Below are positions 2,182 to 46,885 of a DNA stretch of 64,000 bases, piece after piece. Location: assembly GCA_002900995.3 (NCBI GenBank), contig PJEW03000013.1, forward strand, positions 196,519 to 260,518, read 5' to 3'. This DNA is from Ganoderma boninense. Lineage: Eukaryota > Basidiomycota > Agaricomycetes > Polyporales > Polyporaceae. The notes under the pieces were generated by a model that ran no database searches, was not told the DNA's origin, and saw nothing but the letters and a program-made list of their open reading frames with translations. Position 1 is the stretch's first letter, and every line of letters starts with the position of its first letter. Position numbers and translations under genes: made by a program.

Positions 2182-3897
2182 GGCGGCACTACCGATGATG
2201 ACCACGACGTTGATCCTGGATCCTTCCATCGCATCCACTACGAGGCGAACAGGCCCACGGATAGGGCTTGGCGCCTTCAACTGAGCAACCACTATCTTCA
2301 GTTGGTCATGGATATGGTAAGTAGTCTGTTCTCATGCGATCCGCTCGTGCTTAACTGCAATTTGATACTAGCTTACTTGGCTCGACCGCCTCTCTGGCGG
2401 CGCGACAGTCATGATCCACACTCCTGCGACTCGTATGCCCGAGACCTGGCCCGTCCCAGAGGAGGCGCAACTCGATGTATTCCTGCCTATCGTCCTTCCT
2501 CGTGAGCAAAGCGATCTTCGCGCTGTATTTGCCTGCTTGGTCCAGTACTTCGCAGAGTACGTCGCGCCTCCTGCTATGGTTCGTTGGGATCGAGCGAAGG
2601 GTCTTGGACAGGGTGGTCCGTTCTACAATCCCAACCTTCAGAGAGTGGCCTCCGGCCATGCAGACGGGCAGGCCCTCATTCCGCACTCCGTTAACCCCCA
2701 GCACATATTTTACGGGCGCCGACCAGGCGTTCTCGAGCACCTCATCACTATGGAAGGGATCGTCCACCCTCCTCCGCCCTCCGATCCTACCCCGATGTCC
2801 TCTGTTCCGACACCGCCCGTTCCAACGCAACCCATCCTGACGACGCCTGCCCGGACGCCGTCCATTCCGCCACAGGAGGGCGAGTCGCAGTCGACAGGGC
2901 CTCGCGAGCGTGAGATCAAATACGTTTATCCGCCCGATGAACCTCCGAGCCTCGAAGACCTCGACGACCCGTGGAACAAGGACGATGTCGCGGAGTGGAG
3001 GGATGTAGCTGTACCCGCTTCGGGGTCGTTCGACTCGGCGTCGCTGCGCGAGGCCGAGTCGCGACTGGAAATTGAGTCACGGCACGAGGTCGAACGCATT
3101 GCAAACCAGCTAGCCACCGTGCTTCTGAACAGGATGAAGCAACTCGAGCGCGCTGGTGAACGCCGGGATATTGAGATCCACAATCTCCGCTGCCGTCTTG
3201 GAGATGAGCTCGGTAGGTTTGAGTTCGAGTGCTGCAGCTGTGGACGCGGTTAACAATTCCTTTAGGCCCAAACCCAGAGGACGAGGACGATAACAACATC
3301 TCAGTCGGTTGTTCCCCTCGCCCTTCTCAAGGTGGTCCGATTCTCGAGGCTGGACTCCAGGTGGACGGCAAAGGCAATTTTCCTGCTCAAGCTTCTCCCC
3401 GAAATGCCTCGTCGTTCGTGTCGTCTCCCATTCCCTGCGGATCTCCCCCGTTGCAGATCTCCCCCACGCGTGAGTTGCCCTCTTCTCGGACTACTCCTCT
3501 TCGCGACCTGGCAACGCCCTTCTTATCCTCCAACTCACATACCGCCGCTGGTCGGATGCATGTCGCTGGTAGTAGGACAGTTCCTCAGCCCTCCCGCTCC
3601 TTGACCCCATCTTCATCCTGCGAATCTCGGGCAATGGACTCCTCGCCGACCTTGCACGAAACGCCGAGCCCGCCTCGCGATAGTTCTGGCGCGGTTGTCC
3701 CGTTCGGCCCCTCCACCGCCAAAGTTGTGGCGTCCCACAATCTACCGGGATCCACTCACAAGTGTCTCTGCAGTGTATTCCAGGAGTACAGTCGTGTTGA
3801 TTGGGCTTTGGGCTTAATCCAATGTCTTCCCAGCGTCTCTGATGCTGTTGTAGACCAACTCGCGGAAGCGATGCGTCGGGACTGCTCGTTGGCTTGA
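2182..3897 (+). CDS. hypothetical protein, three exons, 5' end unresolved
   Basis: Not recognised. Three exons join in one frame: about 2182-2316, 2372-3212 and 3266-3897. The introns, 2317-2371 (55 nt) and 3213-3265 (53 nt), have GTAAGT/TAG and GTAGGT/TAG ends in phases 0 and 1, so the splices are well supported. The second exon encodes a compact N-terminal region (W-L-D-R-L-S-G-G, then R-M-P-E-T-W-P-V-P) with regularly spaced hydrophobics. It passes into a Pro/Ser/Thr-rich linker and a basic/acidic heptad-like stretch that could be a coiled coil, ending near residue 325. The third exon is Ser/Pro-rich and closes with a short hydrophobic segment before TGA. The start codon lies upstream: the acceptor-like CAG at 2179-2181 suggests another small exon. 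A DNA-binding or scaffold role would be pure guesswork. Confidence 0.55.
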
Positions 3898-5324
3898 GCG
3901 GGACGTCGACCTCTTTCTTGTAGTCTCTAGTATGAGTCCGCAGTGCTGTCATATCGCCTCCATGTATCAGGGACTTCAGTCAGGTCGGTTAATCTTTCGC
4001 CTTTAGTTACTGATGTTCATAGTTCATCTTCTCCAGTAAGGGAGAAGCGCCCGACGGTTAACATTCTAACTTCCGGGAGTAACTTGCACATGCCAAAAGT
4101 TAATTTCTTGACTTGTACTCACTTTTGTAGTGGGGGAAAGCGAGTGCAAGTTAGTTTGTCAACGTGCGCTCAAGTTCACGGAATCTCGCGTGTACGACCC
4201 GAATGTATGACTTACTGCAACGGACGGTTAACATTCTAACTTCCGGGAGTAACTTGCACATGCCAAAAGTTAATTGTAAGTCATACATTCGGGTGCGACG
4301 GATATATAATTGCTTCACCGCGCATAATCCCTATACTTCCATCGTGGGCTGACTACGGTTACACGATGACAGCCATGCCAGTCCTGTCGCCCACTCGTAG
4401 GGTGCTGCCGCGACCGGTCAAGTACAGCGACCTGTTGGACAAACTTGATTCAAGAGTGCAACCTGGAATTCCTGAAAGCTCGATGAAACTGCTGTTCATT
4501 AGGCGCAAGAAATGTAACAAAGTAACCACCAGACGCGCATTCTTGCATCATGTTTGCTGGTAGTGCAGTAGTGCTTGTAATACTTCGCATTGGACGCGAA
4601 CAGACTTCTATCTTGCAATTGAGAAGCAATGGAAAGTGTACGGTCGATCTCAATGCGTATGCTGTATCGCAATGGCGCAATGAATCTCGAATCTCGTGAC
4701 CCTGGCGAACCTGCGGAACAATATATAATCTCAAAGGGTCAATACATATTCACATCAACCGTGAAAAGGTATCCATACCAACTCTTGAAACAAGCCGCGC
4801 CGCGTCGATAAATACATCGGGCGAGCCAAACGGGATTATCGCCTCCGTAATTCTGAACCGACAAGACATCCGAGGTACAAAACGTATGTCACCAGTCAAG
4901 AGACATCAGGGATGGGTTATAAGCAGCTTCGTGCGGTGATGTGGGGCATTCAGACGTATTGATGGGCCGACAGATATAACAAAGAAATGAGCATGACCGG
5001 AAGTATGCATTAACTTGTATTTGCACCACCGCACTCCCGAGCAAATCTCACGATACGTGGGCGGAAAACTACGTGCAAGGCTAAAATCAGCGATATCAAC
5101 TGAAGCCTGCCCGAAAGTTGCTTAGCCTACCGCCCAGCAACTTCAACATGTCGGTAAGCGCCAACCGTGGTGAGACAAGCGTCCGAGTCACAGCAAATCA
5201 CGCTCTTCCCTCGCGAGTGCCCGGCCAGGCGGAGGTGAACTGTCAGGACAAGAATATATAGCAGATAGGGCGCACCTGGTTTGCTCAATTGATCTTAGGT
5301 GCGTACCCGGGCCGCTCCGTCACC
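3898..5324. other. intergenic stretch with small repeats, no gene
   Basis: No coding sequence is supportable. The left part holds the direct and inverted repeats annotated at 4053-4294. A TATA-like run (GGATATATAAT) follows at about 4300-4310 and another (GAATATATAG) at about 5252-5261; neither leads to a convincing ORF. Confidence 0.45.
4053..4294. repeat. 53-bp direct repeat pair with a 19-bp perfect inverted repeat
   Basis: The 53-bp sequence at 4053-4105 recurs exactly at 4223-4275 (170-bp period). The second copy is the loop of a perfect 19-bp inverted repeat (4197-4215 with 4276-4294), giving a potential 98-nt hairpin. Downstream of the first copy is a weaker inverted pair (4080-4089 with 4144-4153, and 4109-4122 with 4137-4150, two mismatches). 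It resembles a small non-autonomous element or a decayed tandem unit. No ORF of note crosses it. Confidence 0.8.
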
Positions 5325-6228
5325 TCATGCCGATTGGCTGGGTAAAGCGGTCTCTACGTTACGCTGGGGTCGGGATGCCGAAGCTAGCAGCCCAAAGCAA
5401 GATAGACACTCATTAGCGAGCGAGAACAAAGTGTTAAGAAACGAGTTGACCTCAGATTTGAGCTTCTCAAGCTTGCTCCTTCTCACCCGGTGATGCAGGT
5501 CCACCTCCTTATCCAACCGTCCACGCTTGACCCGCTCTTGGTCATCCACGCGTGATCTTGAGACAGCACGCTTCTGAGATGCAGACGAAGAGGCTGCCAG
5601 ATACGGCTGGGAAGATGACGATGCCGCGGGTGTAGGATAGGGCTTCATTTCCTCGCCGAATTTGCGCAAACGCGCCATGACATCAGGTCACGCGGAGGAG
5701 AGCTTTGACATGAGGGTCTTCTGCTCTTCGGTCTACCGCTCTAGCAGCTTCCGCTGCAGCAGACGACGGCACAGAAACATTACGAGAAGCAGGTGGCGCA
5801 GAGGTGACGGGGACTTGGAGAGCAGGAGAACCTTCGTGCATCGAATGGCGGAACGACTGACTTCCCCAGTGCCGCGACAATGTTCGCAGACGTTGCAAGC
5901 GTGTGGCCCTTCCTGAGACTGTGCCAGAAGGCGGTTGCTGAAGACTGCCTCCTCAAACTTCTGGGCCATATGCGCATCCCCGCAGAGCGGGACGACAAGA
6001 CGGTTCTCCTGAAGATTCCAGAAGACAAGCTGTTGCTCGGTGCGGTGAACGACTGGTCGCAAGTGTCGCCGTTGACGCCGCGAGCGAAAAGGCTTTGGTC
6101 CGTTTCACGAACCACGACGACACGAGGAAGAGAGCCAGCATATCCGCCATCGCAAACTCGCCCGAATGCCCGAATATTGGGTGACGGCCGACTACCTCGT
6201 TGACTCGGTGTACTGACCGCATCGTCAT
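5325..6228 (-). pseudogene. broken coding remnant, family not recognised
   Basis: Protein-like sequence on the minus strand switches frame several times. One frame (about 6228-6075) reads as a hydrophobic helix-rich piece. A second (about 6070-5860) contains a C-x2-C-x2-C-like cluster (ACNVCEHC) after a W/L/V-rich stretch. A third (about 5850-5685) is Ala/Ser/Pro-rich. The last (5678-5325) is basic, with a heptad-like stretch that could form a coiled coil. The pieces are consecutive and same-strand, so they probably come from one gene that has lost its frame. I found no splice signals that join them cleanly. It could be a fragment of one of the large Cys-rich proteins common in basidiomycete subtelomeres, but that is a guess. 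Confidence 0.3.
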
Positions 6229-8331
6229 AGCCTAAAACCACCCCGCAACGAAGGCGCGTGAGGACGTTAGGCTGCGTGCCATCATGCACGGTCAGATGCT
6301 GAACCCATCGTCAGCCACTCCATCCGCTGGTATCCGGCTTCGCCTCCTCGTGGTGCATGTGAGAGTCCATATCGTCCTTGTGCGATTCTGCCGCAGAGCT
6401 GCTGACCCCGTCGACGGTGCATGAGACAGGATCGACAACGCCGCCTGTCCGCGAGCCATGACATCTGCACGGGGCCGATCGTGGCGATGCGTGTGCACTT
6501 AGCAAATCCCTTGAGTGAGATTAACGAGTGTTAGCATCAGACGAAACGCGCGGGGCACAGCTAGCGTACGAGTCCTCACCTGCTCAGCAACCGCACGGCC
6601 CCGGGACGACACAGGGGTGTCGCTGCCGTCCGTTGTATCAACCGACTCGACCTGCCCGGTCGTCTGTTGCACGCACACGCACAAGTACTTGTCAGTCCAT
6701 ATCCATCCCACAAGCTACATGACTTATGCGTGCCAACAGGAACTGGTACACACCTTGTGCCAGTCATGTACGGCCTGGAGAGTGTTCGCAGAAAGCGCCT
6801 TTCACCGAGAGCTTCTCCGGCCGATTGTTGAGCCTCATGTTCGCTCGTGGTGGGTCACTTCGCATGGTATCATGGTGAAAGGAACGGGAGCCACCCCGCC
6901 CGCGGCCACGTTACAGGCGACAGGTTGAACGCCCATACGCAGGCGGGGCGTCAGAGCCGAGAGGCGTGCTTCTGCGCGAAGCGACAGATCTATCGGAGAG
7001 ATAGGGACAATGAGTGAAATACGGATGAATCCCTGTAATTGGCCTTCGCTCATCACGTCGATCTAGGAGACGACTCTGCATCTCGCTCACAGGTTCTGCA
7101 AGGAGAGTCAGCCTCGAGCGACATGACCACGTCACAAACTCATCGGGCGCACCATCTTGGGGGCCAATGGACCGAGGCAAGGACTTAGGAGCAGAAGGAG
7201 GGCCTGAACGGAAATTCATGGAGAAGAGCCGTTTCTACACTGCCTCTAGATGTCAGCCGGAAGGTGAAATTGACGGTTGTATCGCCCCACAGGACTTACC
7301 TCAGTTTGCTTCATGCGTAAATCTACAGGCACAAACGTCACAACTCCAGTCCCCACGGTTGTTTGTCTCAGTCCTCCTCGACCATCCCGCCTCCAACGCG
7401 ACAAGTGGACCGGCGAGGGTGGTGATTGCCGTTGCTGGGACCGGATGCCAGCTAGAGTCGAACTGGAGGTGGATCCGAGGAGAGGAATGGTCTCAGTCTC
7501 AGTTCCGCAGACAGAAAGAGGCTTGGCGCGGCGCGGGCCCGTATGGGGTAAACCAACCCAGGCGTACCTGGCTTATCCCGCGCTGCTTCTTTTCGAACGA
7601 AGGAATATGCAAGGTTGAACGAAAAGAAGGGAGATACTCACGGAAGCGTTGCAGTCGACAGCATCGACATAATAGACATAACAATTTGTTCATCGCAAGC
7701 ATAGCAATAGGGCCGAACAAAGAACCTCGTCCCATGCTGACCACCGAATGCGTCCCATGCTGACCTCCGAATGTGTGTGTCGATCGTGGCGCTGCGCGCA
7801 CCCGGGATTGGGTCAACCAACCCAGGCGCACCTGGCTCGTCCCACAAGAGAACACAGCAAGCATACGAAGGCTCTGAGCCTGCGACTAAGAGCCGGTTCG
7901 CCTTCACAGACAATGCCTCATTATCATACGAGCCGACAACGAGAGGCGAAAACGGTGTTCAGATTCTTTGTGAGGAGCTATTCAGTGATTCTGATATCGG
8001 ACGGAGACATGGGAACATACACACCTCTCGTCTTGCTCTCATCACTCTGCCGGATGTTCACCCCTCCCCACCCCCCCCCGGCCGTAAAACTTCCCGTTTG
8101 CGGGCTAAAGGGGATGTCCTGGGTTCAGTGGCGTCCTCCAGCCTGTGAAAGACACGTCAATCAGCAGCGATATAGCATGCAGTAGAGGTACATACAAATA
8201 ATCGGCCGGAAATCAGCAGCTTGATTGCCCACGTGTCTACATGGGCAGCGAGGGAGCTTCCGGTGGATGACTGCTGCTGTTACTGCCTCTCGTTGCTGAT
8301 GCAGTTCAGGCTGGAAGATGCCATGAATTGA
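6229..8331. other. no supportable gene; two short repeats
   Basis: Frames on both strands are short and mutually overlapping. A 23-bp unit is tandemly doubled with one mismatch at 7728-7773. A 34-bp phrase with the core CAACCCAGGCG is present at 7546-7579 and again at 7810-7843 with a few changes. A C11 homopolymer-like run lies near 8070. Confidence 0.45.
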
Positions 8332-8431
8332 NNNNNNNNNNNNNNNNNNNNNNNNNNNNNNNNNNNNNNNNNNNNNNNNNNNNNNNNNNNNNNNNNNNNN
8401 NNNNNNNNNNNNNNNNNNNNNNNNNNNNNNN
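8332..8431. other. assembly gap, 100 N
   Basis: Exactly 100 unknown bases, a conventional scaffold-join length rather than a measured distance. Telomere repeats start at the first base on its right side. Confidence 0.98.
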
Positions 8432-8461
8432 AACCCTAACCCTAACCCTAACCCTAACCCT
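8432..8461 (+). repeat. telomere repeat, five AACCCT units
   Basis: Thirty bases of uninterrupted AACCCT abut the gap. Read left to right this is the C-rich strand, the orientation expected at a left chromosome end, so contig 2 appears to start at a telomere. Six bases (CTGATG) separate it from the LTR copy. Confidence 0.95.
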
Positions 8462-8467
8462 CTGATG

Positions 8468-9030
8468 TCGCAGCTGAGCTGGCGGGCGTCCGAGCGTACT
8501 CGGATAGGTGGCGTGCGAGAGACGGAGATAAACCGGATGGGAACCGTCCGCGCTTGCAGAGGTCAGCTGGAGGCCGCGCTTGCGGTAGGATGTGGGTCGC
8601 GCTTGCGTGGTCTATGAGTCGAATACCGAGAGCAATAGATTCGGGTTTGGGATACAGGGAGCGTGTGTGCAAGACGGGAGAGAGTGAGCGGAAGCTGGGG
8701 CCAAAACTTCGGCGAACCCAGCGGGTATCTAAGTGCGGAACCACGGATAATACCTAAAGAGGGATATGTCAAGAATGTCAGCACGGCATTGTCCGGGGTG
8801 ACCACTCAAGGCTCGGGGGACCACGGAAGAGAAGGCGGAAGGACACAAATGAGGCATCGGGAAGATAACACCCAGATACGGAACATGAATGCGGGGCAGA
8901 CGGAAGAGCGAGAAGAAGGAGCGGTACGGAATGAGCGGTATGGACGGCCAGGACGCATAAGGCGCCGGCCCGGGCAACGGTGCGGCACGTATGCACACGG
9001 TATACGAGTGTCGTATTCGACACTACCACA
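8468..9030 (-). repeat. truncated LTR next to telomere (copy 1 of a 563-bp repeat)
   Basis: These 563 bases recur at 31066-31628 with two differences that I can see (near 8505 and 9015). Read on the minus strand the unit starts TGTGGTAGTGTCGA, a usual LTR start. It lies 110 bp downstream of the last ORF of the minus-strand retroelement, as a 3' LTR would. The other copy continues for roughly another 100 bp before its gag leader, so this copy seems to have lost its 3' end where telomere repeats begin. ORFs within it are shadows. Confidence 0.7.
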
Positions 9031-9139: not shown

Positions 9140-10093
9140 TCAAAACCCAGCCATGAGCCAACCCCACCCGTTGTCGTCGGCATCGTACCTCCAATCGGTT
9201 AGGACGACACCTGAACCGAGGATCGCCTCGCGAAGCTCCAAGGGCGAATGTTCATACAAGCTGCGCTGTTCATCAAGCCAGCTCCCCATCGCAATCAGAC
9301 GGAGGCGCCGCACTGGCACAATGAGCTCCAGATCAGGCCACCAGCGCCCGGTGTTGCGCTCGAGCTCGTAGATGAACGTCGATGTCGGCACTCGCATGAG
9401 GTACCACTCTGGTTCGGAGAGGTGCTGCGGGGGATGGTCGAGATCGAGGTTGATGACATGTTGCATGAGGTCGCGGTAAGAGCCCCGTGTAACTGGTAGG
9501 CCGGTAGCAGCATGCCGCAGGGGAAGGTCAGGTGGCAAGACATGAGGGAATGGCCTGAAAAGGGCGCAAGCGTCGCGGAAATAAGAACGGTTGAAGGGAT
9601 ATCCATCTTGAGGGTAGCGCGAAGGGCAATACGAGGGGTCGAGGGTGCCGCAGGTGATTTCTGACCAGCGGAGATGGATGTCTGCAACGTAGACACGCGC
9701 AACAATGCAGACGTCGTTGTCGATGAACTCGTGGCCCTCTGCGAGACCAGCGATGGAGACGGGTCGAGTAAAGAGGGAAGGGAAGGAGTAATAGCGGGAT
9801 GCTGGAAGACGAGATCGGGGTCGACAGGGTGATCGTGCTCATGGTATAGCCAATCGTCCATCCTCGCGAACATGGGGCGAACCTCGAGGAATCCGTGACA
9901 TCGTTGGAGGCCGGTGCGAGGTTCGCGTGCGTTGCTGAAGACGGTGGAGGCATATGCACGATCCTGCTCGGAGGCGAAGAAGGAGCAAGAGGTGCTACAC
10001 CCCGAAGACGGAAAGGACGCGGTCGAGGTGGAGCGTGGGGTCAAACTCGATCCCGTCGATGGGCCAGAAGGGCAAAGGAGCGACGGGGGGCAT
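9140..10093 (-). pseudogene. accessory ORF downstream of Gypsy pol (element X ORF3), two frameshifts
   Basis: A continuous protein-like reading is obtained from ATG 10093 through three frames. Frame one ends in VFG just before a C4 run (10000-10003 on plus). Frame two carries C-H-G-F-L-E-V-R-P and a W-L-Y-H-E-H-D-H motif. Frame three, entered near 9790, runs to the stop at 9140 and is rich in Trp/Tyr/Asp. No GT-AG intron of usable size explains either switch, so one-base indels are more likely. It starts about 130 bp after the pol stop on the same strand and is followed by an LTR, so I infer it is the third ORF of the element. The function is unknown. It has no obvious signal peptide or membrane segment, so the env-like position does not imply an envelope protein. 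Confidence 0.5.
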
Positions 10094-10224: not shown

Positions 10225-13077
10225 CTAAGTAGGACCATGGACCGCGCGATAAGTGTACACTGCGGCCAGTGTCGAAAGAGGGTTGACGCGACGAGCGTCG
10301 TGCTCCGGGGGAGTCCTGATGTGGGCGCGCAAAGTCTGGTTATCAGGGCAGAAGAAGAACAGACGAAGGCGGCGGATGTTAACGTGACCTTTTAGCACGG
10401 CTCCGGAGAGCTCGCGCAAGATGAAAGAGTCGCGTCCACGCTTCTCGTGGATCACGTAGGGCCCGGCGTAGGTCCATTCGCCCTTGCCGCCCTTGATCTC
10501 GTCGAGCTTGGATTCCCGTAGCCAGACATACATGCCCACTTCGTAGGCATCGAAGTCGAACTTGTAGTGGTGACGGCGGGCATAGTCGTCCATTGCTTTC
10601 CTTCGCGAGGCTCGAAGACGGTCGTGGGCCTTCTCTAGGTTGACGTCGCGGCGTTGAATCTGTCGCGCGCGCATTGCAACGAGGTCCTCGTGCGAGTGAA
10701 CCTGGTCCCAATCGAGGGTCTGCCAAGTGACTTCTTCGACGTCGTACGAGAATACGGGGTGCTGGCCGTAGAGGAGGTAGTATGGCGAGTAGCCCGTCGC
10801 GCGCGAGACGGTTGTGCGCATCGCGAAGAGACCGGCGCGAGGTACAGTGGCCAGCGGCCCTTTGCGTCGCCTGTAACCTTGGTCGTGAGCGTGTTGTGCG
10901 ATCGCTCCACGGGGGCGTTGCCCTCGGGGTGGTAGGCTGTAGAAAAAATTACTGTACACCTGTACAGTGTGCGGAGGAGATGTTGAACTTCACCAAGAAA
11001 TTCGGATCCCAGGTCGACCGTGATGACCGGGACGCAGCTGAAACGACAGATGATATCTTCATAGATGAACTTGGCGACGGTGCGCGCGTTCGCGCTCTTG
11101 ATTGCGCGGGCTTCTGGCCAACGGATGGTGCGTTCAATAGCCTGAATGACATACTTCTTCTTGCCGACACCCATGGGCATGTGTATGGTGTCGAGATCGA
11201 AGTGTCTAAGGAGAGGAGAGAGCCAAGACTCGTTATAAGGGAGGACGGGCTTAGCTTGCATGGCACGCTGGCATTCAATGCACGACCTCACAAAGGAGAC
11301 GTCGTCCCACATGTTGGGCCAATAGAAGCGGTCGAGCAGGAGTTTGTGCGTCGCGTCGCGGCCGCGATGACCAGCCGCAAGGTGCGCTTCAAGCATGAGC
11401 GGGCGGCGGCGATCACGATCCTCGACGACGAGGCGCGGTGGTGCAGGTGAATTGCGCTTTGGCGCGAGCCAGAGACGGTCGTCCCGGAGGAGGAAGCGGC
11501 GAGCGCGGCGCTGGAATGTGAGACGACCACTGTCGGTGAGCAAGCGTGGCGGGAACGTTCCGGACGAGAGAAAAAGACGTAGCTCGTCCCAATAGGACGT
11601 GTCGTCCTTGTCTTTTGTGCCAAAGCGGTGGCCTGAAGCCGCCCGCCATGAGGACGTGAGGCGTGAGAGGTTCCGAAAATGCTGAGTTGAATGGGACATC
11701 AATCTCCAGGACATCTCCAGCAAGGACGAACGTCACAGGCGCATAAGTGGGGAAGGAGCGGGTGAAAACCCCTTCACAGCGGCGGGAATTGTGGGGATGG
11801 ACGTGCGCTAGGGAAGAACACGCAAGTAGAGAGCCCGGAACAGAGGAGAAGAAAGAGGGGGCGGTGGGATTGAAGCGATCACTCGCAGGAAAGGTGAGCG
11901 CAGTGGAAGCGCCGTAGGTTTGGAGAGACGGAGTATACTGCAAAGACACTGCAAAAGGGTTCGAGTGCGTGAGCTGGAGGGAACGGAGGATCGAGCTGAC
12001 AGAGGAAAACGTAGCTGGGCAGCTGCCCGAGTGTGGGACAGCGGCATACAAATCGTATGCATCCAGAAACTCGTTGACGTCCTCAGAGGGATCTGGAAGG
12101 CCAGTGTTGATTGGAGGGGCGCGCGAAAGCGCATCCTCCATCTTCATGGCAGAGGCGGGGACGTGCTTGGTCTCGAAGTCGAAGAGGAGAAGCCACGAGA
12201 CCCAACGCAGCATGGGCGCATTTGGGACATCGTCTGGCTTCTTCAACATAGTGGCCAGGGAGATTGCGTCGTGTTCAAGCCGAAAATGCACGCCCCAGAC
12301 GTAGTGTCGGATGGCTTTGAGGGCGATGAAGGTCCCGAAGACCTCGGACTTTGGCTGGCCGTAGTTTTGCTGTGCTTTTGTGAAGGTGCTCGATCCGTAG
12401 AGCGCGACGCGCTTGATGCCGTCGACAATCTGGTACAGGACCCAACCGGCACCCATCCAGCTAGAGTCGACGCCTACGACGAGCATGCCATCATCAGAGT
12501 TGCGAGGAGGAAGAGTTATTAACGTAGCTTTTTCATAGTCGATGCGCACAAGGACGGGTGCAGAGGTGAGGCGGTGCTTGAGCTCAGCGACCGCCTCCTC
12601 CACGTCCGGTGTGATCTCGAATTCGTCGGGGGAACAGGAGAGAAGGGCGGTCAGTGGCCAAGCGATGCGGGCATAGTTCTTGATCCAGCGGCGCGCGCCG
12701 CCAGCGAGGCCCAGGAACATGCGCACTTCGGAGACCGACTCGGGTACGGGCCACCGCAGGACTTTTTCAACGAGACCAGGCCCCACTTGCCAGCCTTGAA
12801 GGCTGACAAGCGAGCCGACGATCTTGAGGAGCGAACACGCAAGAACGGTCTTGAGGGCAGAGATCGTGATGCCACCTGCAACCAGAGCAGCGAGGAATGC
12901 AGCCATGCGCTCAGCAAATTCAAACACGAACCTGCGGATGTGCGGATTGCCTATGATAGGCTCGTCGTCGTAGCGGGAACGCGGTCCCTTCACGCTGCTA
13001 TCATCGACGAAGTTGTCCGCCCAGTCGCGTGCCTTCAGTCGCTTGAGAACGTGGTCGGTGCAGCGGCCGAACTCTTG
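10225..13077 (-). pseudogene. Ty3/Gypsy pol, 5'-truncated (element X: RT palm, RNase H, integrase)
   Basis: Polyprotein remnant. In order: RT active site F-V-D-D (about 13015-13004) followed by the RT thumb; RNase H beginning V-D-S-S-W-M-G-A-G-W; the H-H-C-C integrase zinc-binding module (H-L-A-A-G-H ... C-I-E-C); and the integrase core with D (FDLDTIH), D (VDLGSEF, where the usual DNGSEF has Leu) and E (EGNAPVERSH). A basic C-terminal domain ends at 10225. RT sequence upstream of the palm is missing and homology stops at about 13077. The frame changes near 11640 and back near 10830, two compensating one-base shifts. Gag and protease are not present here. The RT and RNase H style differs from element Y, so it is a separate Gypsy lineage. 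Non-functional as sequenced. Confidence 0.88.
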
Positions 13078-14002
13078 AGTTGAATTGGTGTAGCCTTAGA
13101 TGAGGGTCGTTTGTTGCTTCGGACCATCTGGCGAGTGGAAGGTGCCGAGAGGACGTGAGGAGACATCGAGGATGCGGGCGTCGAAGCCACTGCAGGAAAA
13201 AGCATTTTGTACATGGCCACCGTGGAGAGCTATGGAGCTTCCGTAAACTACGTACCTCTGGTGCGGGACTCCATAGCGCGCTGTAGCGCCAAGTAGTGCC
13301 TGTAGATTCAGCTCCAAAATGTCGTTGGAGAGCATAGTCATAAGTAGGCCTTGAATGTCAAGGGAAGGCGTGCAGCATGATATATGGCCCTCAAGTAGGC
13401 TTAAATGTCTCCATTTACGGTGCGCTGACGATTTGACAGAGAAGAAGGAACCAACGAGGGGAGAGCGTCCCGTTCTCTGGACAGTTTGTCCCACGGAACA
13501 TGTGCCGTGGCACAGTGGCACAAGGCGTGATCTACTGAGTCACATGGAGTGACTCGTGTCACCCGTGTGGCTCTGCGCTCCCGCTCCCGCCTTGCTCCTC
13601 GTCCGTTGTGGTTGCCTGCCACCCCGCCCTCGCTCATCAGCTTGTGCCACCCCGCCCTCACTGTACGTCACTATGGTTTCTCTTTGTGGCACAGTCAGCT
13701 GACAACAGCATGTTCTGCACCACTGTAGCCGTCATCTTCCGGCCCCTCAACCACATCCGATTCGGCCATTTCGCAGCGCGACAGTAGCGGTAACCCTGGC
13801 ATTTTCATTGTTTAGAGTCGATTCAGAGGGCCGTTGTGGAGGTATAGGACGTCGGGCTACGGATGGGGTCACTGCACCGTTGTTGAAAGGTGAGTATGGT
13901 CTACGCATTATTGTCTTGCGCATCCCCGGCCTTTGCAAGTAGCTATCCCCCGTATATATCCCCTGCCTCCGTAATAATGTCATTTACCATTTCGTACACA
14001 TC
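13078..14002. other. intergenic between element X and the CxC gene
   Basis: No gene seen. It contains the left palindromic motif (13467-13520) and several GTGGCAC words. A TATA-like CGTATATATCCCC at 13951-13963 lies about 45 bp before the ATG at 14003 and is a plausible core promoter for the CxC gene. Confidence 0.5.
13467..13520. repeat. left imperfect palindrome, candidate terminal inverted repeat
   Basis: Starting GTCCCGTTCTCTGG and containing CCACGGAACATGTGCCGTGG, this stretch matches the reverse complement of 20375-20421 at 39 of the first 47 positions by eye. The core is itself nearly palindromic, so part of the match is seen in either orientation, but the outer 20 bases match only as an inverted repeat. 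The two copies frame the CxC and RTC4 genes. Confidence 0.5.
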
Positions 14003-16326
14003 ATGGACGTGCAAACAGTCCTCAAGCTCCTCGTTGACAATCCACACATTGCGTCGATCCCGTTTTCGACGGTGCTCACGTTCTGCGATCTGACCCGGTG
14101 GCTCCATGCCGACATCGCCTTCTCCCAACCTTCCTATGTCGAAACACCACCGAACACCCTTCCTCTCAACATCCATAACTTTCTCCTTGCTGCTCTGGCT
14201 CTTGATGACCAAGTCTGTCGTCTCCTGTGGACCGTGCTCCGCTGCTACATCTGGACTATGATCTCAAATGTCTCTGACTTGGAGGACCGGAACGGAGCAC
14301 TGGTCAATCTGTTTCTCCAACATGGAAGGCCCTATCAGATTAGTAAGTAGCTGATTCTACTCCTTCGGAGCATGGTGCGGGCTTCTAACTACTGTGTTCT
14401 GTGCGCTCAGTGATATACAATCTTGTGCCGCCAGTCCGCAGATGCCTCACTCCAGAGTGCGTATATGAGGTCCCAATGCAGCCTGGAGTACTTCGCGCTC
14501 GGGAGCTTGGTCATCCTGATTCCCATGAGGCAACCCTCTTCACCCGAGAATTTGGACCTCTCCCGATCCGCACAACCTCGCTCTATTGTCGTTGTATGTT
14601 GACGACTCATGTTTTATATTCATACATAACTCAGTAGGGCATGCTATAGACTGCAAGACTCGGTACCATGCCAACTACTACGTCCACGACATAGCGACGA
14701 CCCGTACATACTATGGCGGAGTCCCGAGGCAGTTACAGGTCGCTACTCACTACTTCGTTGAAGATGGCGTCTGTGAACTGTTTGCAAACATGATGGCGTT
14801 CGCATGGTACGGGCTGATCTTTAAGGATGAATCCAATATCATTGGCTGACTTGGATTTATAGGACCTCTGCGACGAACTGTGCCCGTGTATACAACTTAT
14901 CTACCCCCCGCAAATTTGTCTCCAAGTGGTCTTCGCAGCTAGACATAGACGTGGACAACGTCTGGGACTCATTTTTCCTGTACGCATTGCTTCAAGACTG
15001 TGAACGGCGTGATACCATTCTCGAAATCCCAAACAATGCGACACACTCGGACCGTTATCTCGCTGCGATCAAGGCCCGGAATGCTGCGATGGTCGGGCCG
15101 AAGAATCCATACTGGAACCATGCTTGCGACTTGTGCTGCTGGGTATCCAAGGACGAGTCTGGTCAGCAATGTACATTCTCAGATATTTCTAAAGATATCT
15201 TGCTTGAATTGACTAACGTGTATCAGGTGCGATCCGCTCGTGCGTCACGGATGGCATCAGCATTGGACACCCTTGCTGTGCTGTACATGACTGCCCCAAT
15301 CCACTTATCATGAAGAAAGGCGCGCGGTACTGTCTGGAGCATCAGTCTCGGGAGGATGACTGCTCTGTTCTTTCGTGCAAGGCGAAGGCGATCCCTGGTT
15401 TCCGTACCTGTGCTGAGCCCAGCCACCGTGCCCTTGAAGACTATCTGCGCCTCGAAAACAAAGCAATGTTCCAGCTCAAACGGCGTCACGAGCGACTTCA
15501 CGCAGAATCCAAAACGACTGATCGCATCCCCATAACCTCTGTCTCTCACACGCAGCTCGAGCAGCTCATATCCAACGCCACCAGTACAACACAAGGTACT
15601 CCAAACACTGAGGCCAACAGCGAGCGATTTTTCGAGTCGCTTGATGACGTCCTCGACAATGGCGAGATCGAATGCAATGCTGAGAAGTCCACATCCGGAA
15701 ACAAGCGTCACCGCGCTCAGTTCGGGCGGCGTCGCACACATAATGAAGAGCTCGTGGTTGCATCTTGCAGAGTAATCATTGGACGCGCAACGTTCTTCGG
15801 TTCAGAGGCAATCAATGGTGTCGTCGTAAGCTTGCCCTTCATGTGATTGCAATTTCAACCACTAACGCATGCGGCACTGCGCTAGTGGATGTGGAAGATT
15901 CTCTTTCCGACCACGGCATCCGTTCCACAGATTCTCTGGCACGATCAGAACTGCCGTGTATGGCGAATGTTACAGAACGAGGATGAAGCGACCCAATCCC
16001 ATTTCGCCCAGTGCGCCTTGCCCGTGGACGTGTTCCACTTCAAATGCAAGCACAAGGAGTCTGATGTTATCTGTGGTACGCATTGCAACCCATATCACTG
16101 GCCGGAGCTGCGCACCGAGAAGGGTGAATGGAGGTTCAATTCATCGGCAGCCGAGCAGAGTAATGTGTGGATGGGGAAGTTCCAGCCGATCGTTCGAGAG
16201 ATGCAGGTGGACAGATATAACTTCTTTCTGGATGAGGCGACAAGACGCCGAAATAATTTCACTATCGCAGAGCTCGAGCGTGGGGGACATGCACCATACT
16301 TTATCCCTCGTGAAGCTTTGGCCTAA
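14003..16326 (+). CDS. CxC5/CxC6 cysteine-cluster protein (KDZ transposon-associated type)
   Basis: Six exons (14003-14342, 14411-14593, 14650-14806, 14863-15161, 15227-15825, 15886-16326) join in frame through five GT-AG introns of 56-68 nt to give 672 residues, so the gene is intact. The N-terminal helical domain is followed by the CxC5-type cluster (C-L-T-P-E-C ... L-Y-C-R-Y-C-K-T-R-Y-H, where the second motif is created by splicing) and C-D-L-C-C near residue 315. A CxC6-type block around residues 335-420 reads G-H-P-C-C-A-V-H-D-C ... C-L-E-H ... C-A-E-P-S-H. The C-terminal domain has A-Q-F-G-R-R-R-T-H-N-E and later V-D-V-F-H-F-K-C-K-H, N-S-S-A-A-E-Q-S-N-V-W and Y-N-F-F-L-D-E. Such proteins are known as companions of Kyakuja/Dileera/Zisupton transposons in mushrooms. 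I find no KDZ transposase in this window. It converges on the RTC4-like gene, whose end is 45 bp away. Zinc-dependent nucleic-acid binding is likely; the precise role is unknown. Confidence 0.88.
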
Positions 16327-16370
16327 ATGCTGTAGTTTATGCCACCATGATACATATTTGTTCTTCTCGT

Positions 16371-19300
16371 CTACTCAATTACAATCACATCTTTTCCATC
16401 CTCATGGATTACATTGTATTGTGGGTAAGCAACGTCCGGTGAGTCTATCCGAATGTCAACTGGTTCTGTCTTGACAACCAGCGACTCAGACCCTGACTTG
16501 GACTCGGATATGACATCAGCAAGCAGATCACGAGCATAAAGCAACGCCGCATTCAGTTGAGCATCCTCACGATCTGTCGGAAACATGCGCATTCCATATT
16601 CCGAGCTCTCGGTAAGGATCTGGATAGCCTCGGTTTTAAGGTTTGGCGGACGGTCTGTGGTGCAGCTAGAGCGCGGGCACGGATCAGTCTCACACGGCTT
16701 TGCGGTCAATAGCATGTGAGGTGAGCGAGACCGGAACCCTGTCTAAAGAGGCCGAAAGTTTGCATGTAAATAGCTACAAATAATCAGTACCAGACCTCGA
16801 CACAGACGTGTGCGTGCCCCGGGAGGGAGCCGAAAACTATACAGTACGAAACTCTAACCGTCGCAACTGCCACATACCATAACAGGTAGCCCTGCTACCA
16901 AACGCCGCGCCACAAGCGCTCTGCCGCGCTGCGCGCGCTTTGCTCCCGCTCGCCCCGTTCGTGCCCTGCGCTTCCTCCACCCGTCGTCGCGGTTCCGCGC
17001 AACCCTCAACACTCGGCCCGCGTGCATGCTCGGTCGTCCATGATAAGGCGGGTGGAGACCTCAGGCAGGAGGACACTGGCTACGAGTGTCTCGAAGGCCA
17101 TAGGGCGAAGGTGCTCGAGGTCTGCTCCACGGAAAAGGTAGAGCAACATGAAGTGAATAATTTCATGTCCTTGCTCTCCGTAACTGGGGAAAACATCAGC
17201 ATTCAACCAACCAAACGAAACATCAAGCGAAATAGACGTACTAGCCCGTTTTACCCATGAGCATAAGCTGCTTACGAGCTTCCCGTGGTGGAAGGCCCGA
17301 CTGGCCGCCAAGACGGGCGGCCTTGTCATAGTATTCGTTGCCTTCCGGATGTTCAATTAGCTCAGCGAGATTATCTTGTAGATCGAGGACACGGTCGCAG
17401 AGTGCATTAAGCTCGAAGTCCTCGGGCCAACCAGATTGACGAGCTTTACGCAGCAAAGTGCGCTCGAACTCATGGCGCTCACAGTATGGCTCGGTGATGC
17501 GCCAGGTGGTCGTCACCCGGTGATGGGGGTTCTCGGGAGTTGGGTCAGGGTGCGAAACAGCCTCGAGGTCTTGACGCATCAGGCGCATGACTTCTGTCGG
17601 CTCAAAGTCAAGGATCTCATCGCAGAAATCACATTGTTGATGGCTTGTCTGCCCATCTGTGGGCGCAGTTAGTGTGCAGCACTCAGCACCAGAGTCGTGA
17701 TAATGCGCACCAAGGTCAAGCTCCGACATTGCATCATCTTCTGGCAACTTCTTCTCTGCCTCTAAAACATTCCGCATACTCGCAACGACCTGTGATGGAG
17801 GAGAAGGCAGGAGCAAGGGAGACAGCTCAGGGTACTTTCCCTTCGCTGATCGGCGTGCCCCTACTAGTAATGTGGAGTCAGTTTGCAGCTTGCCGGTTGG
17901 GCATACAGTACAACAACTCACCTCGTTTGTGGGCCTGGTAGAAAGCAGGCCACCGCCCACGAGGATCAGTGTCTCCAAATGCGATGAATTCTGCCTTGAC
18001 ATCGTCCGAAACCTCCATCCAGAAGCCCCAATTCCGACCCCATGTGGACCGTGCCCGCTTAATACCAAAAACCTCCAAGAACGCGAGGTCCTTCGTCACC
18101 TTGCCCTTCTTCTGGGTATTTGTTGCGATAGGTGCCAGTGTTGGGGACTGAGATAGGTCACCAGCACCCATGAGACGTTGCATACGTTCGAAGCCCCGAG
18201 CAACCTCCGCGACATTGAAATCCCGGGGCCATCGACGAGTTGGCAGTGCTGTCTGTCCACTAGGCTCGAGCTTGACGCGCTCTTGGATGGAAGGGAGAGA
18301 AATGACTGTGCCTGGTGGTCTACCTGGTTGCGAAGAGGGAAGGGAGATAGGAGATGAGGGCGTCTGTGAGAGACTCGGCCCGGGGCTTGTCGTAACAGTC
18401 CGAGGGATCTTCGTAGGTGGCATGCCTTCGAGGCTCGGACCGCGGCGCTTTCTCTGACGGCGCAGTCGTTCTAGCTCCACGTCGAGACCAGGGCACTCCT
18501 GCCACTTGTAGAGAAGCGTAGGAGGCAGACGGATAAGGATGCGGGACACTGAATCGGCGACCAGAACGGTATTGGGTTTACCCATCTTCCATCCGTTCTC
18601 GAGCACATCCCAGAACTGGACATTCGACTCATCAGAGAGACCAAAAGCCTGCATGAGGTCGTCGTAGTCCTCGAGTTGAAGGCGGGGGTGTGTCTTCGCT
18701 ACCTTCGAGACGACTAGAGGTTCCTCATTGTCCTGCAAGCCAAAAGTGAGAGGTGGATACTACGAAACAACATATACAACGTGCGTACCTTGTGCCAGAT
18801 GAGCATTGTGACTGACTGGGCTGCATCGAGCTTGCGCTTCTGCACGAGCACCTTCGCGTCCTTAACCTCTGTCTTGGCCTTCACAGCCGTGTCGCGGTTC
18901 TGACGCCAGAGAGGCGTGAGTGGCTGAGCCCGCAGAGAGGGCCCACCGGGGCGAGGTTGTATGGTTGACGATGGAGCTGCCGACAGCGAGGGAGTAGACC
19001 GCAGTGTGATTTGAGATGGGATATGGGACTGGCTGGGCCCAGCTTGAATGGCTTTCGGTGGTCGCTTGGAGTCGATCTGATCGAGAAGACTTTGGAGCAT
19101 CCGCTCAAGCTGTGCAAGAGGGACGGATTGGAGGGCCGCTGTGAATGCGATATCGCCTAAGTCACTGCTAACTTGTGGCTGCAGCAGCGTGGCAAGAGTC
19201 TGAGACTCAATGGAGGGGGCAGGAGGAACGGATGCAGGGATTGTTGGGGTGGAAGAGCTACCCACCAGAGAAGGGATAACGGAAGTCGGCGTAGGCTGCG

Positions 19301-19946
19301 AGAGGGGTGGAGTGTAGCCATCGACATTGTGCGTCTTGCACTTGTTGCGGAAAGTACCAGCCGCACGAGCAGCAGACCCTTCAGACTCACAGCAGGACGT
19401 ACACAGCGTCTCAATGCAGGTCTTGCTTCCTCGGGTGCGGGTCCCATTTTGATACAAGCAGTGGATGTTTGCACACGGCGTGTACGAAGAGGCCGTCCGA
19501 TTGGTGGATGGAGGGGCATCCTGAGTCGATGGCGGGGTAGGGATGGAGCTCGAAGGAACATGAATGGGAGGGGCAAGACGCAACACGGCACCTTCACGGG
19601 TAAGCTGAGCAGCGTAGACCGTGTCACTTGGATTTGCATGCCGAGCCCAGAGCCACTGAACGAGCTGCTCAGCATCCTCATAGACGTATGCTGGGGTGTG
19701 TTTGGGAGTCCAATGGCACCGAGGGGATGCAGAACACTGGCTACATGTGTTAGTAGGGAGCAACATAGGAATAATGTATGAAGGACGTACACTTTGAACA
19801 ATGCGACCACGGTCAGCCAAACCGCGTTTTCCAGTACCTTCATGGACACGGAAAAACTCCATAGTGCTTCCGCATTCCGCGCAATCCTTGAGGAGCTGCA
19901 ACTGCGGATCCGGGACGATGACGAAGGAAGGTGGAGGAGAAGCCAT
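16371..19946 (-). pseudogene. GRF zinc finger plus RTC4-like domain protein, last exon interrupted by an insertion
   Basis: Exons 19946-19791, 19736-18789, 18732-17922, 17860-17242 and 17183 onward join in frame (introns 54-61 nt). The N-terminus has a GRF-type zinc finger (C-A-E-C-G, D-R-G-R, C-S-A-S-P-R-C-H-W) that is complete only if the in-frame 54-nt intron 19790-19737 is removed. A second Cys/His cluster follows (C-A-N-I-H-C ... C-C-E-S-E ... C-K-T-H), then long Ser/Pro-rich disorder. The C-terminus matches the RTC4-like domain: C-D-F-C-D-E-I, E-N-P-H-H-R, Y-C-E-R-H-E-F-E, G-Y-Y-G-E-Q-G, L-L-P-E-V-S-T-R-L-I-M-D-D. In yeast RTC4 was named for a telomere-capping phenotype. Reading stops at TGA 17008-17006 (903 residues). 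However, the frame after R-A-E appears to resume with A-I-Q-I-L-T-E-S-S-E-Y-G at 16628 once the 378-bp insertion is excluded, and it ends at 16371. A TATA-like GCGTATATATTTATG lies 65 bp upstream of the ATG. Confidence 0.78.
16634..17011. mobile_element. MITE-like insertion in the last exon of the RTC4-like gene
   Basis: The 378-bp segment is flanked by CTCGG on both sides (16629-16633 and 17012-17016). Its ends form an imperfect terminal inverted repeat: plus strand TTTTAAGGTTTGGCGGA and minus strand TGTTGAGGGTTGCGCGGA, 14 of 17 positions equal with one gap. Removing the segment and one CTCGG joins codons for R-A-E directly to A-I-Q-I-L without a frame change. It has no ORF, is GC-rich at its right half, and would truncate the host protein by about 85 residues. 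The transposon superfamily cannot be told from this. Confidence 0.6.
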
Positions 19947-20374
19947 ACCGAGACGACAATGCAGGACGACCACTCGAATGTGGAGCTTACTTATGTGCAG
20001 CACTTCATCATAAATATATACGCCTCTACTATGATACAAGCGTAAAGACGACCAGGGAGGAAAAGCGGGCTGGGCTGTTGAGCCAAAGCGGAGGCGTTGA
20101 GTAGGGACCAGGTGGTTGACAGCCGGGCCGTGGCTAAGCGTGGTTGGACCAGAAAAGGACAAGTCGGAAGGGATAGAAGCCAAAGCAAGTACGAGTAAGG
20201 CTGTTGAGCAAAGCGGAATCATGTTGATGACTGCCCAGGGCGTCGGTCGGGCCTACATTGGGCAATACGGCGGGGAAGGGTGGTGGCGGGATGAGCGATG
20301 GGGCAAAGCGGGACGGACAATACGAGGTGACGTGACAGGCAGGAGGTCACGCGGCAATCGCCGGATGTCCCATT

Positions 20375-20421
20375 GTCCCGCGGCACATGTTCCGTGGCAC
20401 GACCTGGCCAGGGGACGGGAC
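20375..20421. repeat. right imperfect palindrome, candidate terminal inverted repeat
   Basis: Contains CCCGCGGCACATGTTCCGTGG and ends GGGGACGGGAC. Its reverse complement aligns with 13467-13513 (39 of 47 by eye). A short direct phrase AACGAGG(G)GAGAG lies just outside both copies (13454-13465; 20428-20440), offset by a few bases. Confidence 0.5.
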
Positions 20422-20461
20422 TTTCTGAACGAGGGAGAGTGGACACGACGGGCACAGCAGG

Positions 20462-30554: not shown

Positions 30555-30654
30555 NNNNNNNNNNNNNNNNNNNNNNNNNNNNNNNNNNNNNNNNNNNNNN
30601 NNNNNNNNNNNNNNNNNNNNNNNNNNNNNNNNNNNNNNNNNNNNNNNNNNNNNN
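30555..30654. other. assembly gap, 100 N, inside retroelement sequence
   Basis: Exactly 100 unknown bases. Left flank: gag of element Y. Right flank: the first 62 codons of a gag that follows the 563-bp LTR. Whether both belong to one element cannot be judged from this sequence. Confidence 0.98.
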
Positions 30655-30842
30655 AATCGGATTCGATCGCGGACCGCAGAAGTGCAATATCGTAGGATCC
30701 ACCCGTCTTGGGTATCCTCGTCTGTAATCCTGACGCGCGTGAGGTGCATACTGACGTCGTCGAGGAAGTCGGTGATGTAGTGCCCATCGAACTTCGGAGC
30801 TTCGGTCGTGTTGGGGATCGGCATGGAATACAAGGCGGCCAT
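30655..30842 (-). CDS. gag start, cut by the gap
   Basis: From ATG 30842, 62 residues with P-I-P-N-T-T-E-A-P-K-F-D-G and F-L-D-D-V, the usual N-terminus of basidiomycete Gypsy Gag proteins. It lies about 125-220 bp downstream of the LTR copy, as a gag leader would. A candidate primer-binding site (TGGCTCTAATTG on minus) sits at 30952-30963. Since this LTR also lies behind element X, I infer this is the 5' end of an X-type copy rather than of Y; the alternative is that Y owns this LTR. Confidence 0.65.
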
Positions 30843-31065
30843 AGTGGGTGCGATAGATGCCGGGGGATATGGGGCAGGAGGATAGGACAGCTTGATGGTA
30901 GAGCGCGGCAGTCAGGCCGCGAAAGGGGGTAGGGGAAAATACGTTCAGATTCAATTAGAGCCACTCAGCTATAATTCGAACACCACCCCTCGCGGTGGGC
31001 TCCACTGTCGAAGGAGAGAGTACTTCCCTCGTCTCCTCGTCGAGAACGTGGGGCGGACGTCGAAC

Positions 31066-31628
31066 TCGCAGCTGAGCTGGCGGGCGTCCGAGCGTACTCG
31101 GATGGGTGGCGTGCGAGAGACGGAGATAAACCGGATGGGAACCGTCCGCGCTTGCAGAGGTCAGCTGGAGGCCGCGCTTGCGGTAGGATGTGGGTCGCGC
31201 TTGCGTGGTCTATGAGTCGAATACCGAGAGCAATAGATTCGGGTTTGGGATACAGGGAGCGTGTGTGCAAGACGGGAGAGAGTGAGCGGAAGCTGGGGCC
31301 AAAACTTCGGCGAACCCAGCGGGTATCTAAGTGCGGAACCACGGATAATACCTAAAGAGGGATATGTCAAGAATGTCAGCACGGCATTGTCCGGGGTGAC
31401 CACTCAAGGCTCGGGGGACCACGGAAGAGAAGGCGGAAGGACACAAATGAGGCATCGGGAAGATAACACCCAGATACGGAACATGAATGCGGGGCAGACG
31501 GAAGAGCGAGAAGAAGGAGCGGTACGGAATGAGCGGTATGGACGGCCAGGACGCATAAGGCGCCGGCCCGGGCAACGGTGCGGCACGTATGCACACGGTA
31601 TACGAGTGTCGTACTCGACACTACCACA
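31066..31628 (-). repeat. LTR copy 2 (563-bp repeat)
   Basis: Equal in length to 8468-9030, with two differences seen. On the minus strand it begins TGTGGTAGTGTCGAG with a small palindrome. It probably continues past 31066 to around 30965, giving an LTR of up to about 660 bp, since gag starts at 30842. Upstream flank (plus, from 31629) is unrelated to the flank of copy 1. Confidence 0.75.
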
Positions 31629-46400: not shown

Positions 46401-46885
46401 GACAGCTCTCGCCGCCCACGCCTGCCGAGGGCGCTTCCATGGAGCCCGCTTGTCCCTTTCACCGCTCGCATACGCTCAAGTCGCATTTGCTTCATGGACA
46501 GTTGGATACACATAGCTGTGATGGCGATACGTGCATGCTTCAAGTTCTCGTAGGGCAAGCTTGGTGAGTACATGTGCTTGACCTCCGGGTCGTCCTGCTT
46601 GGCACGGCCAGCTGTGTCGTTGACCCAGAACTTCACGATCTCGATAGCCTTGTGTCGATTCTTCCCTGCTAGGAAGTTTCCAACGATGGATCCATGACGT
46701 GGAGTCCGTTGGATAGGAAAGCCCTTCGCATCATGCGTCCGGAAGACGTGGTAGAGAAATTCGCCCAGCGACCAGCGATATGATTGGAGCAGATCGAATA
46801 CAGCGTGCAACTTGTCATCGGGTGAAAGGAGCTTCCTCGGCGCTGGCCCTGGTGAGTCCTCCTCTAGGCTCTCCCCATGCTGCAT
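43432..46885 (-). CDS. DUF6589 domain protein
   Basis: Three exons (46885-45147, 45074-44369, 44301-43432) join in frame with introns of 72 and 67 nt to at least 1104 residues. Diagnostic features: R-F-D-N-V-Q-Q-F-L-R, G-D-G-L-T-F-E-K-L, W-H-T-T-W-T-F-L, and late F-R-F-A-G-S-S-H-S-K-Y-T-T-Y-L-L-E-M created across the second splice. These match DUF6589, an uncharacterised family abundant in agaricomycetes. The acidic insert between exons B and C is low-complexity. An upstream frame from 47253 (M-D-H-S-S-S-R-A-D-L) probably adds an N-terminal exon, but the donor there is ambiguous. The conserved Asp residues and genome-wide expansion of this family would fit a transposon-derived protein; that is inference. 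Confidence 0.88.

What the first reader, a model, noticed from the sequence alone, without database searches (positions are those of the whole stretch)
8432..9030. Retrotransposon LTR capped directly by telomere repeats
Five AACCCT units are followed after 6 bp by a 563-bp LTR that has lost its far end compared with its second copy. This is what de novo telomere addition (chromosome healing) onto a broken retroelement, or preferential insertion of the element at a chromosome end, would leave. The LTR sits in its proper place behind a minus-strand Gypsy pol and accessory ORF.
Basis: partly seen in the sequence, partly recalled or inferred. Interest (0 to 1): 0.8.

Follow-up and report, generated by a model that had tools for sequence, protein, structure and literature searches.

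The report
Broken retroelement capped by telomere repeats
In a mushroom-type fungus, the cut end of a mobile element is joined to a short run of chromosome-end repeats exactly where the assembled piece stops, most likely a broken chromosome end that was re-capped and then placed wrongly inside a scaffold.

Summary
The feature is real: five AACCCT units (8432-8461), 6 bp, then 563 bp of a Ty3/Gypsy LTR lacking the last 60 bp of its 623-bp sibling (31006-31628). Perfect 18-bp runs occur at 10 loci of this genome: 6 at contig edges, all pointing outward, and 4 as 3' tails of a telomere-attaching Penelope-like element (PLE). Three contigs that stop beside a PLE tail keep 121-313 bp of PLE; ours keeps none, so telomeric DNA is likelier than a hidden PLE. 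Arrays on C1 and C7 also sit on cut retroelements. None of the 6 LTR loci of this family found outside the window lies by telomere repeats, and the capped LTR lacks its terminus, so targeted insertion is not supported. Best reading: breakage inside the 3' LTR, repeat addition, misplacement by scaffolding. An interstitial repeat cannot be excluded without reads. Known kind of event, moderate interest.

The parts
8332..8431 (.). 100-N assembly gap left of the telomere repeats; the join of contigs 1-8331 and 8432-30554 is not supported by sequence
8432..8461 (+). five perfect AACCCT units from the contig's first base (C-rich strand reads inward, as at a left chromosome end)
8462..8467 (+). CTGATG, junction filler found neither in the telomere unit nor at this place in the sibling LTR
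8468..9030 (-). 3' LTR of Gypsy-1, truncated: lacks the 60 bp that include the CA terminus
9140..9838 (-). accessory open frame (stop to stop, 232 codons) between integrase and 3' LTR; no Pfam match at E 0.01
10225..13188 (-). Gypsy-1 pol remnant (RNase H, integrase zinc-binding, rve below its cut-off) in several frames; 81-85% identical to the C2 copy; homology stops at 13188
13461..20427 (+). neighbouring DNA transposon: CxC6 domain associated with KDZ transposases, inverted ends, 8-bp direct repeat AACGAGGG just outside both ends, 97-100% copies on C4 and C14
22971..30202 (-). second Ty3/Gypsy element (Gypsy-2) with open gag and pol frames
30555..30654 (.). second 100-N gap, between the two LTR copies of Gypsy-1
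30655..31005 (-). Gypsy-1 internal region next to its 5' LTR (90% to the C2 copy over internal region plus part of the LTR)
31006..31628 (-). complete 623-bp sibling LTR in 5' LTR position

Best explanation
The contig 8432-30554 starts at a chromosome terminus, present or recent. A Ty3/Gypsy element (Gypsy-1) near a chromosome end was cut inside its 3' LTR. Everything distal, with the last 60 bp of the LTR, was lost, and the cut end received TTAGGG repeats after a 6-nt filler. Shown: truncation, array, orientation, contig edge, recurrence of outward arrays at contig edges, and a telomerase RNA-binding-domain match in this genome. Inferred: that a break came first, that telomerase (rather than end-joining or a PLE) supplied the repeats, and that scaffolding misplaced the contig 205 kb inside C13. 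Misplacement is plausible because the stretches of this contig that I examined are transposon-derived.
For: Array flush with a gap. Of 10 loci with a perfect 18-bp run, 6 are at contig edges with the repeat pointing outward and 4 are PLE tails. Sibling LTR and C2 LTRs show the truncation. Edge arrays elsewhere meet cut retroelements: on C1 about 244 bp of a 460-bp Gypsy-3 LTR, on C7 a PLE that starts at RT residue 197. Telomerase_RBD matches over the cut-off on C6. Three contigs in which a PLE tail lies within 1 kb of a gap keep 121, 132 and 313 bp of PLE body up to the gap; this one keeps none. 97-100% copies of parts of the contig elsewhere leave little unique sequence to anchor it. Scaffold ends are no reliable guide to chromosome ends: of the 28 ends of C1-C14 (outermost 200-220 bases printed) 2 look telomere-like (C1 left, C10 left), 2 read N (C13 left, C14 left) and 24 show no array.
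Against: Only 30 bp of repeat, at a gap edge. Position 205 kb into a 1.17-Mb scaffold. The nucleotide next to the array is not in telomeric register and CATCAG (sense) is unexplained, whereas a 1-5 nt seed is said to favour healing (PMC2246262, passages). On C1 the contig across the gap carries the same element family in the right order, which suits an interstitial repeat as well. PLE copies with telomeric tails also lie inside scaffolds, one at C13:95 kb, so internal telomere repeats need not be misplacements. Within Gypsy-1 it is a single case among the LTR loci found.
Confidence: 0.55

Rival explanations
1. Interstitial telomeric repeat: a break inside the LTR was repaired internally with capture or synthesis of telomeric repeats plus a few extra nucleotides and loss of 60 bp or more; the scaffold order is right and the gap hides the rest.
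For: Published mammalian interstitial repeats include one inserted with seven random nucleotides and one with a 7-bp deletion (PMC2246262, passages), like the 6-nt filler here. On C1 both sides of the gap belong to the same element family in order.
Against: No second match to the capped LTR stretch in the left contig, and the C2 LTRs, which include the region of the missing 60 bp, match the window only at the two known LTRs. No telomere runs of two or more units on the far side of any of the five gaps whose other side was read. All 6 edge arrays point outward; 3 of 6 would be expected if orientation were random.
Confidence: 0.22
2. The repeats are the 3' tail of a Penelope-like element whose body lies in the gap: the PLE attached to a broken or telomeric end at the LTR.
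For: Same orientation as the PLE tails; 13 tails in the fetched loci carry 1-4 units; at C13:93,866 a PLE tail directly follows an interrupted Gypsy-2 copy identical over 214 bp to window 30341-30554. EN-deficient PLEs prime on exposed termini or double-strand breaks (PMC3846280, passages).
Against: The tail here would have 5 units against at most 4 in the 13 seen (a small margin: a 30-bp run against 28 at most); the three PLE contigs that stop at a gap within 1 kb keep 121-313 bp of PLE body, this one none.
Confidence: 0.15
3. Assembly or cloning artefact: a telomeric read end joined by error to the LTR contig.
For: Contig edge next to a gap; poor-looking sequence at other edges (C1, C4); four clean edge arrays start in the same register, which hints at a processing step.
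Against: Perfect units at the edge; six distinct junction sequences at six edges; outward orientation in 6 of 6.
Confidence: 0.08

Closest known systems
De novo telomere addition (chromosome healing) on truncated retroelements, e.g. truncated MoTeRs in Magnaporthe oryzae (PMC7367193, passages)
   Same: cut retroelement sequence directly followed by telomere repeats in terminal orientation
   Different: MoTeRs are inserted in telomeres; Gypsy-1 is an LTR element with no telomere preference seen; there 19 of 24 de novo telomeres at the rDNA end had a 1-4 nt seed, here none is visible
Interstitial telomeric sequences formed at double-strand breaks (PMC2246262, passages)
   Same: repeat plus a few extra nucleotides and a small deletion
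   Different: those are seen with both flanks; here only one flank is assembled
EN-deficient telomere-associated Penelope-like elements (Athena, Terminons: PMC3846280 and PMC6431247, passages; Coprina and Gladyshev and Arkhipova 2007 recalled, not read)
   Same: a family of this make is in this genome: RT, reverse-complement telomeric 3' tail, weak hammerhead match, 5' truncation next to telomere repeats, mostly near scaffold ends or edge arrays
   Different: no PLE sequence is assembled at the window junction itself
LTR elements that target telomeric chromatin (yeast Ty5; recalled)
   Same: an LTR element next to telomere repeats
   Different: the other Gypsy-1 LTR loci found are not at telomere repeats and the junction lacks the LTR terminus

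Membership tests
Chromosome healing / de novo telomere | telomere repeats begin directly at truncated non-telomeric sequence | tested here: met
   (with 6-nt filler)
Chromosome healing / de novo telomere | repeats oriented with the G-strand 3' end outward | tested here: met
Chromosome healing / de novo telomere | short telomeric seed in register at the break | tested here: not met
   read by eye; common but not obligatory (5 of 24 events without it in PMC7367193), so I call the event healing-like
Chromosome healing / de novo telomere | junction is a physical chromosome end | not testable with these tools
   no reads; contig edge next to a gap
Telomere-targeted LTR retrotransposon | several copies at telomere repeats | tested here: not met
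   0 of the 6 LTR loci found outside the window
Telomere-targeted LTR retrotransposon | complete LTR end with target duplication at the junction | tested here: not met
   60 bp including the CA end are missing
Ty3/Gypsy (element named Gypsy-1 here) | LTR pair with TG...CA ends flanking pol in order RT-RNase H-integrase | tested here: inconclusive
   RNase H before integrase, and LTRs, found; no RT or gag domain matched among the frames scanned; longer relative on C2
Telomere-associated PLE (genome context) | PLE-type RT without GIY-YIG domain | tested here: inconclusive
   320 relatives among 7995 candidates scored, PF00078 precomputed for some, PF01541 for 0 of the 120 listed; the query itself matched no Pfam model at E 0.01 and no PDB chain at E 1
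Telomere-associated PLE (genome context) | reverse-complement telomeric 3' tail | tested here: met
   13 tails of 1-4 units in the fetched loci; most of these loci were fetched for telomere-like repeats, so this is no census
Telomere-associated PLE (genome context) | hammerhead ribozyme near the 3' end | tested here: inconclusive
   core motif present, 20.9-24.4 bits, below gathering scores; 0 at gathering threshold in 9 sources

The most novel reading that the evidence does not exclude
Several chromosome ends of this fungus have no conserved subtelomere: telomere repeats sit directly on whatever retroelement was broken last (Gypsy-1 LTR here, Gypsy-3 LTR on C1, PLE RT on C7), with a telomere-attaching PLE family adding to the same ends, so that ends are repeatedly lost and rebuilt on broken transposons.
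Probability: 0.25. Interest if true: 0.55.

Novelty: new member of a known kind. Interest (0 to 1): 0.36.

Why it matters
If the junction is a real end, it is a recent healing event: the two LTRs differ at 2 of 563 sites and the truncation came after insertion. It would mark where a scaffold must be split, and with the C1 and C7 junctions and the PLE tails it would give a way to test how mushroom chromosome ends are rebuilt. If interstitial, it is one more telomeric scar in a transposon.

Tried and rejected
Targeted insertion of Gypsy-1 at telomeres: rejected. Shared subtelomere at the edge arrays: not upheld; the match between C11, C1 and the C12 end belongs with a high-copy Ty3 family (Gypsy-3) and, on C1 and C12, with poor-looking sequence. 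A subtelomeric duplication of 13461-20427: rejected; it is a transposon with inverted ends and an 8-bp duplication. PLE body in the gap: kept as a rival, lowered. Junction CTGATG as a hammerhead core fragment: a 6-mer match expected by chance, not pursued. The idea that the C1 array abuts a whole 241-bp LTR was corrected to a truncated 460-bp LTR. cannot say how common truncated Gypsy-3 LTRs are: only the best 40 of 422 candidates were scored (41 matches, 40 full length including the query, 1 partial). Species not identified; top hits of a DUF6589 frame are Trametes at 51-58% and Ganoderma leucocontextum at 53%. In the listings that I saw (only the top rows of the long ones, open-licence papers only) no title reports telomere-capped LTRs of this kind; I did not read those papers for it, apart from passages of PMC3846280, PMC6431247, PMC4700185, PMC7473861, PMC10817607, PMC2246262 and PMC7367193.

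Full report
Observation. The array, the 6-bp filler and the LTR match are exactly where the finding says. The sibling LTR at 31006-31628 is 623 bp long with TG...CA ends in minus sense, and the capped copy has 563 bp of it with 2 differences, both transitions. Alignment with the LTR pair of a relative on C2 (89.4% between its own LTRs) and with a C14 copy shows that the missing 60 bp are part of the LTR. What the finding left out is decisive for its meaning: the array starts on the first base after 100 N. It is a contig edge.

Genome survey. The window is C13:196519-260518 of a 55.6-Mb genome in 74 scaffolds. Perfect AACCCT runs of 18 bp or more lie at 10 loci. Six adjoin gaps (C1:3428813, C4:4529373, C5:25404, C7:259569, C11:3026319 and this one). 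Four are 3' tails of one repeat family (C3:62447, C5:4443154, C6:43299, C13:93868). In all six gap cases the repeat points outward from its contig. In four of the six it starts on the first base after the gap and in the same register, AACCCT; on C1 and C4 the first 12-bp run starts after 14 and 47 bp of telomere-like or poor sequence. The shared register is unexplained. The 12-bp pattern gives 82 matches, many inside other repeats.

The tailed family. It encodes a reverse transcriptase-like protein with YIDD, with 320 relatives among 7995 candidates scored; RVT_1 is precomputed for some of the 120 listed and a GIY-YIG domain for none; named relatives are from Mycena, Armillaria, Sanghuangporus, Lyophyllum, Phellinidium and Trametes. 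The query itself matched no Pfam model at E 0.01. A hammerhead match below the gathering score lies near its 3' end. Tails carry 1-4 units in the 13 found in fetched loci. Its 11 RT matches lie at C2:2.5 kb, C10:2.6 kb and 8 kb from the right end of C10, C12:8 kb, C6:57 kb, 57 kb (C11) and 116 kb (C7) from right ends, next to the edge arrays of C4 (one) and C7 (two), and at C13:95 kb. This is the architecture of telomere-associated PLEs as described in PMC3846280 and PMC6431247 (passages); in Agaricus bisporus, Penelope-like elements were found at two chromosome ends that lacked telomere sequence (PMC7473861, passages).

Telomere or PLE tail at the window junction? Orientation fits both. Three contigs in which a PLE tail lies within 1 kb of a gap keep 121, 132 and 313 bp of PLE body up to the gap; on C7 the PLE body runs about 2.4 kb from its tail to the edge array itself. 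The window contig keeps no PLE sequence, and its 30-bp run is slightly longer than the longest tail (28 bp). I therefore favour telomeric repeats over a hidden PLE, without certainty.

Terminus or interstitial? For a terminus: outward orientation in 6 of 6; no telomere run of two or more units on the far side of the five gaps whose other side was read (window, C1, C5, C7, C11; on C4 the fetched other side reads N); no trace of the LTR's missing end in the left contig; and a contig made of transposons in the stretches examined, which a scaffolder could misplace. The left contig ends in an arm of an inverted-repeat family; long paired arms are seen on C4 and shorter paired matches, about 13-40 kb apart, on several scaffolds, a second reason to doubt the join. 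Against: location 205 kb inside C13; a PLE with telomeric tail also lies inside C13 at 94-97 kb; on C1 the contigs on both sides of the gap carry the same Ty3 family in order, which an interstitial repeat would also explain. Extra nucleotides and small deletions are known for interstitial repeats (PMC2246262, passages). De novo telomeres on truncated MoTeRs are known in Magnaporthe (PMC7367193, passages).

Other edges. C1: the array meets about 244 bp of a 460-bp Gypsy-3 LTR; of 41 matches scored to the full LTR 40 are full length, but these are the best 40 of 422 candidates. The solo copy at C13:913303 has a CGAAC duplication (read by eye). C11: 204 bp of sequence, then a full Gypsy-3 LTR. 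C7: a PLE that starts at RT residue 197, 5 bp from the array. C4: a PLE fragment about 0.3 kb inside the array's last 18-bp run. C5: low-copy sequence with 65-77% matches at C6 and C13. So three of six edges, the window included, show a retroelement cut at the array itself (window, C1, C7); C11 and C4 are uncertain and C5 shows none.

Gypsy-1 itself. One search gave 11 matches, which I group into 8 LTR loci (two in the window; C2 twice, C14, C18, C13:917901, C5:3214952; the last three are short fragments); the tool calls such counts lower bounds. None of the 6 outside the window has a gap or a 12-bp telomere run in the 9-10 kb fetched. The window pol is a remnant; identity to the C2 copy is 84.7% and 81.0% and stops at 13188, and about 3.1 kb of the C2 internal region has no DNA match in the window. 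The two window LTRs are each other's closest relatives among those found, so they are probably one element split by later insertions, but two copies cannot be excluded.

Mechanism, step by step. Insertion of Gypsy-1 (shown by LTRs; the outer flank of the 5' LTR reads CCGG, as at the C2 copy). Cut inside the 3' LTR with loss of the distal part (shown as truncation; the break is inferred). Six nucleotides of unknown source (shown). TTAGGG addition (shown as sequence; telomerase inferred, its RNA-binding domain is encoded on C6). Placement inside C13 by scaffolding (inferred).

Verdict. A real junction, most likely a healed or once-healed end, of a known kind, undecided between terminal and interstitial until reads are mapped.

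Noticed in passing
L028 4754-4990 (C13:93653-93889): A Gypsy-2 copy, 100% identical over 214 bp to window 30341-30554, is interrupted and followed directly by TTAGGG units and a Penelope-like element; the far side of the PLE was not examined.
   Followed up: partly
C2:2551, C6:57055, C7:258424, C13:95425 and 7 fragments: Telomere-associated Penelope-like family with CCCTAA 3' tails, sub-threshold hammerhead match and stacked truncated copies (L025, L041).
   Followed up: partly
window about 6332-8331: Arm of an inverted-repeat family; paired matches about 13-40 kb apart on C1, C4, C6, C7, C9, C12, C13, long arms on C4 only. C13 holds many.
   Followed up: no
window 8432; C5:25404; C7:259569; C11:3026319: Four clean telomeric contig edges all begin in register AACCCT (chance about 1 in 216); could be assembly processing or a preferred strand end.
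   Followed up: no
C1:1777102, C8:967011, C8:1012558, C10:1382529: Another repeat family ends in CCTAACCCTAACCCTAG after a conserved G+C-rich stretch.
   Followed up: no
C1:3428800-3429100: Telomere array directly on a truncated Gypsy-3 LTR inside a scaffold, next to a 100-N gap.
   Followed up: partly
C13:1-9000 and the start of C14: Scaffold starts read N (withheld or gap).
   Followed up: no
window 41487-43106 and 45131-46885: Open frame with a Helicase_C match and a DUF6589 open frame; the latter has relatives in Trametes and Ganoderma.
   Followed up: no
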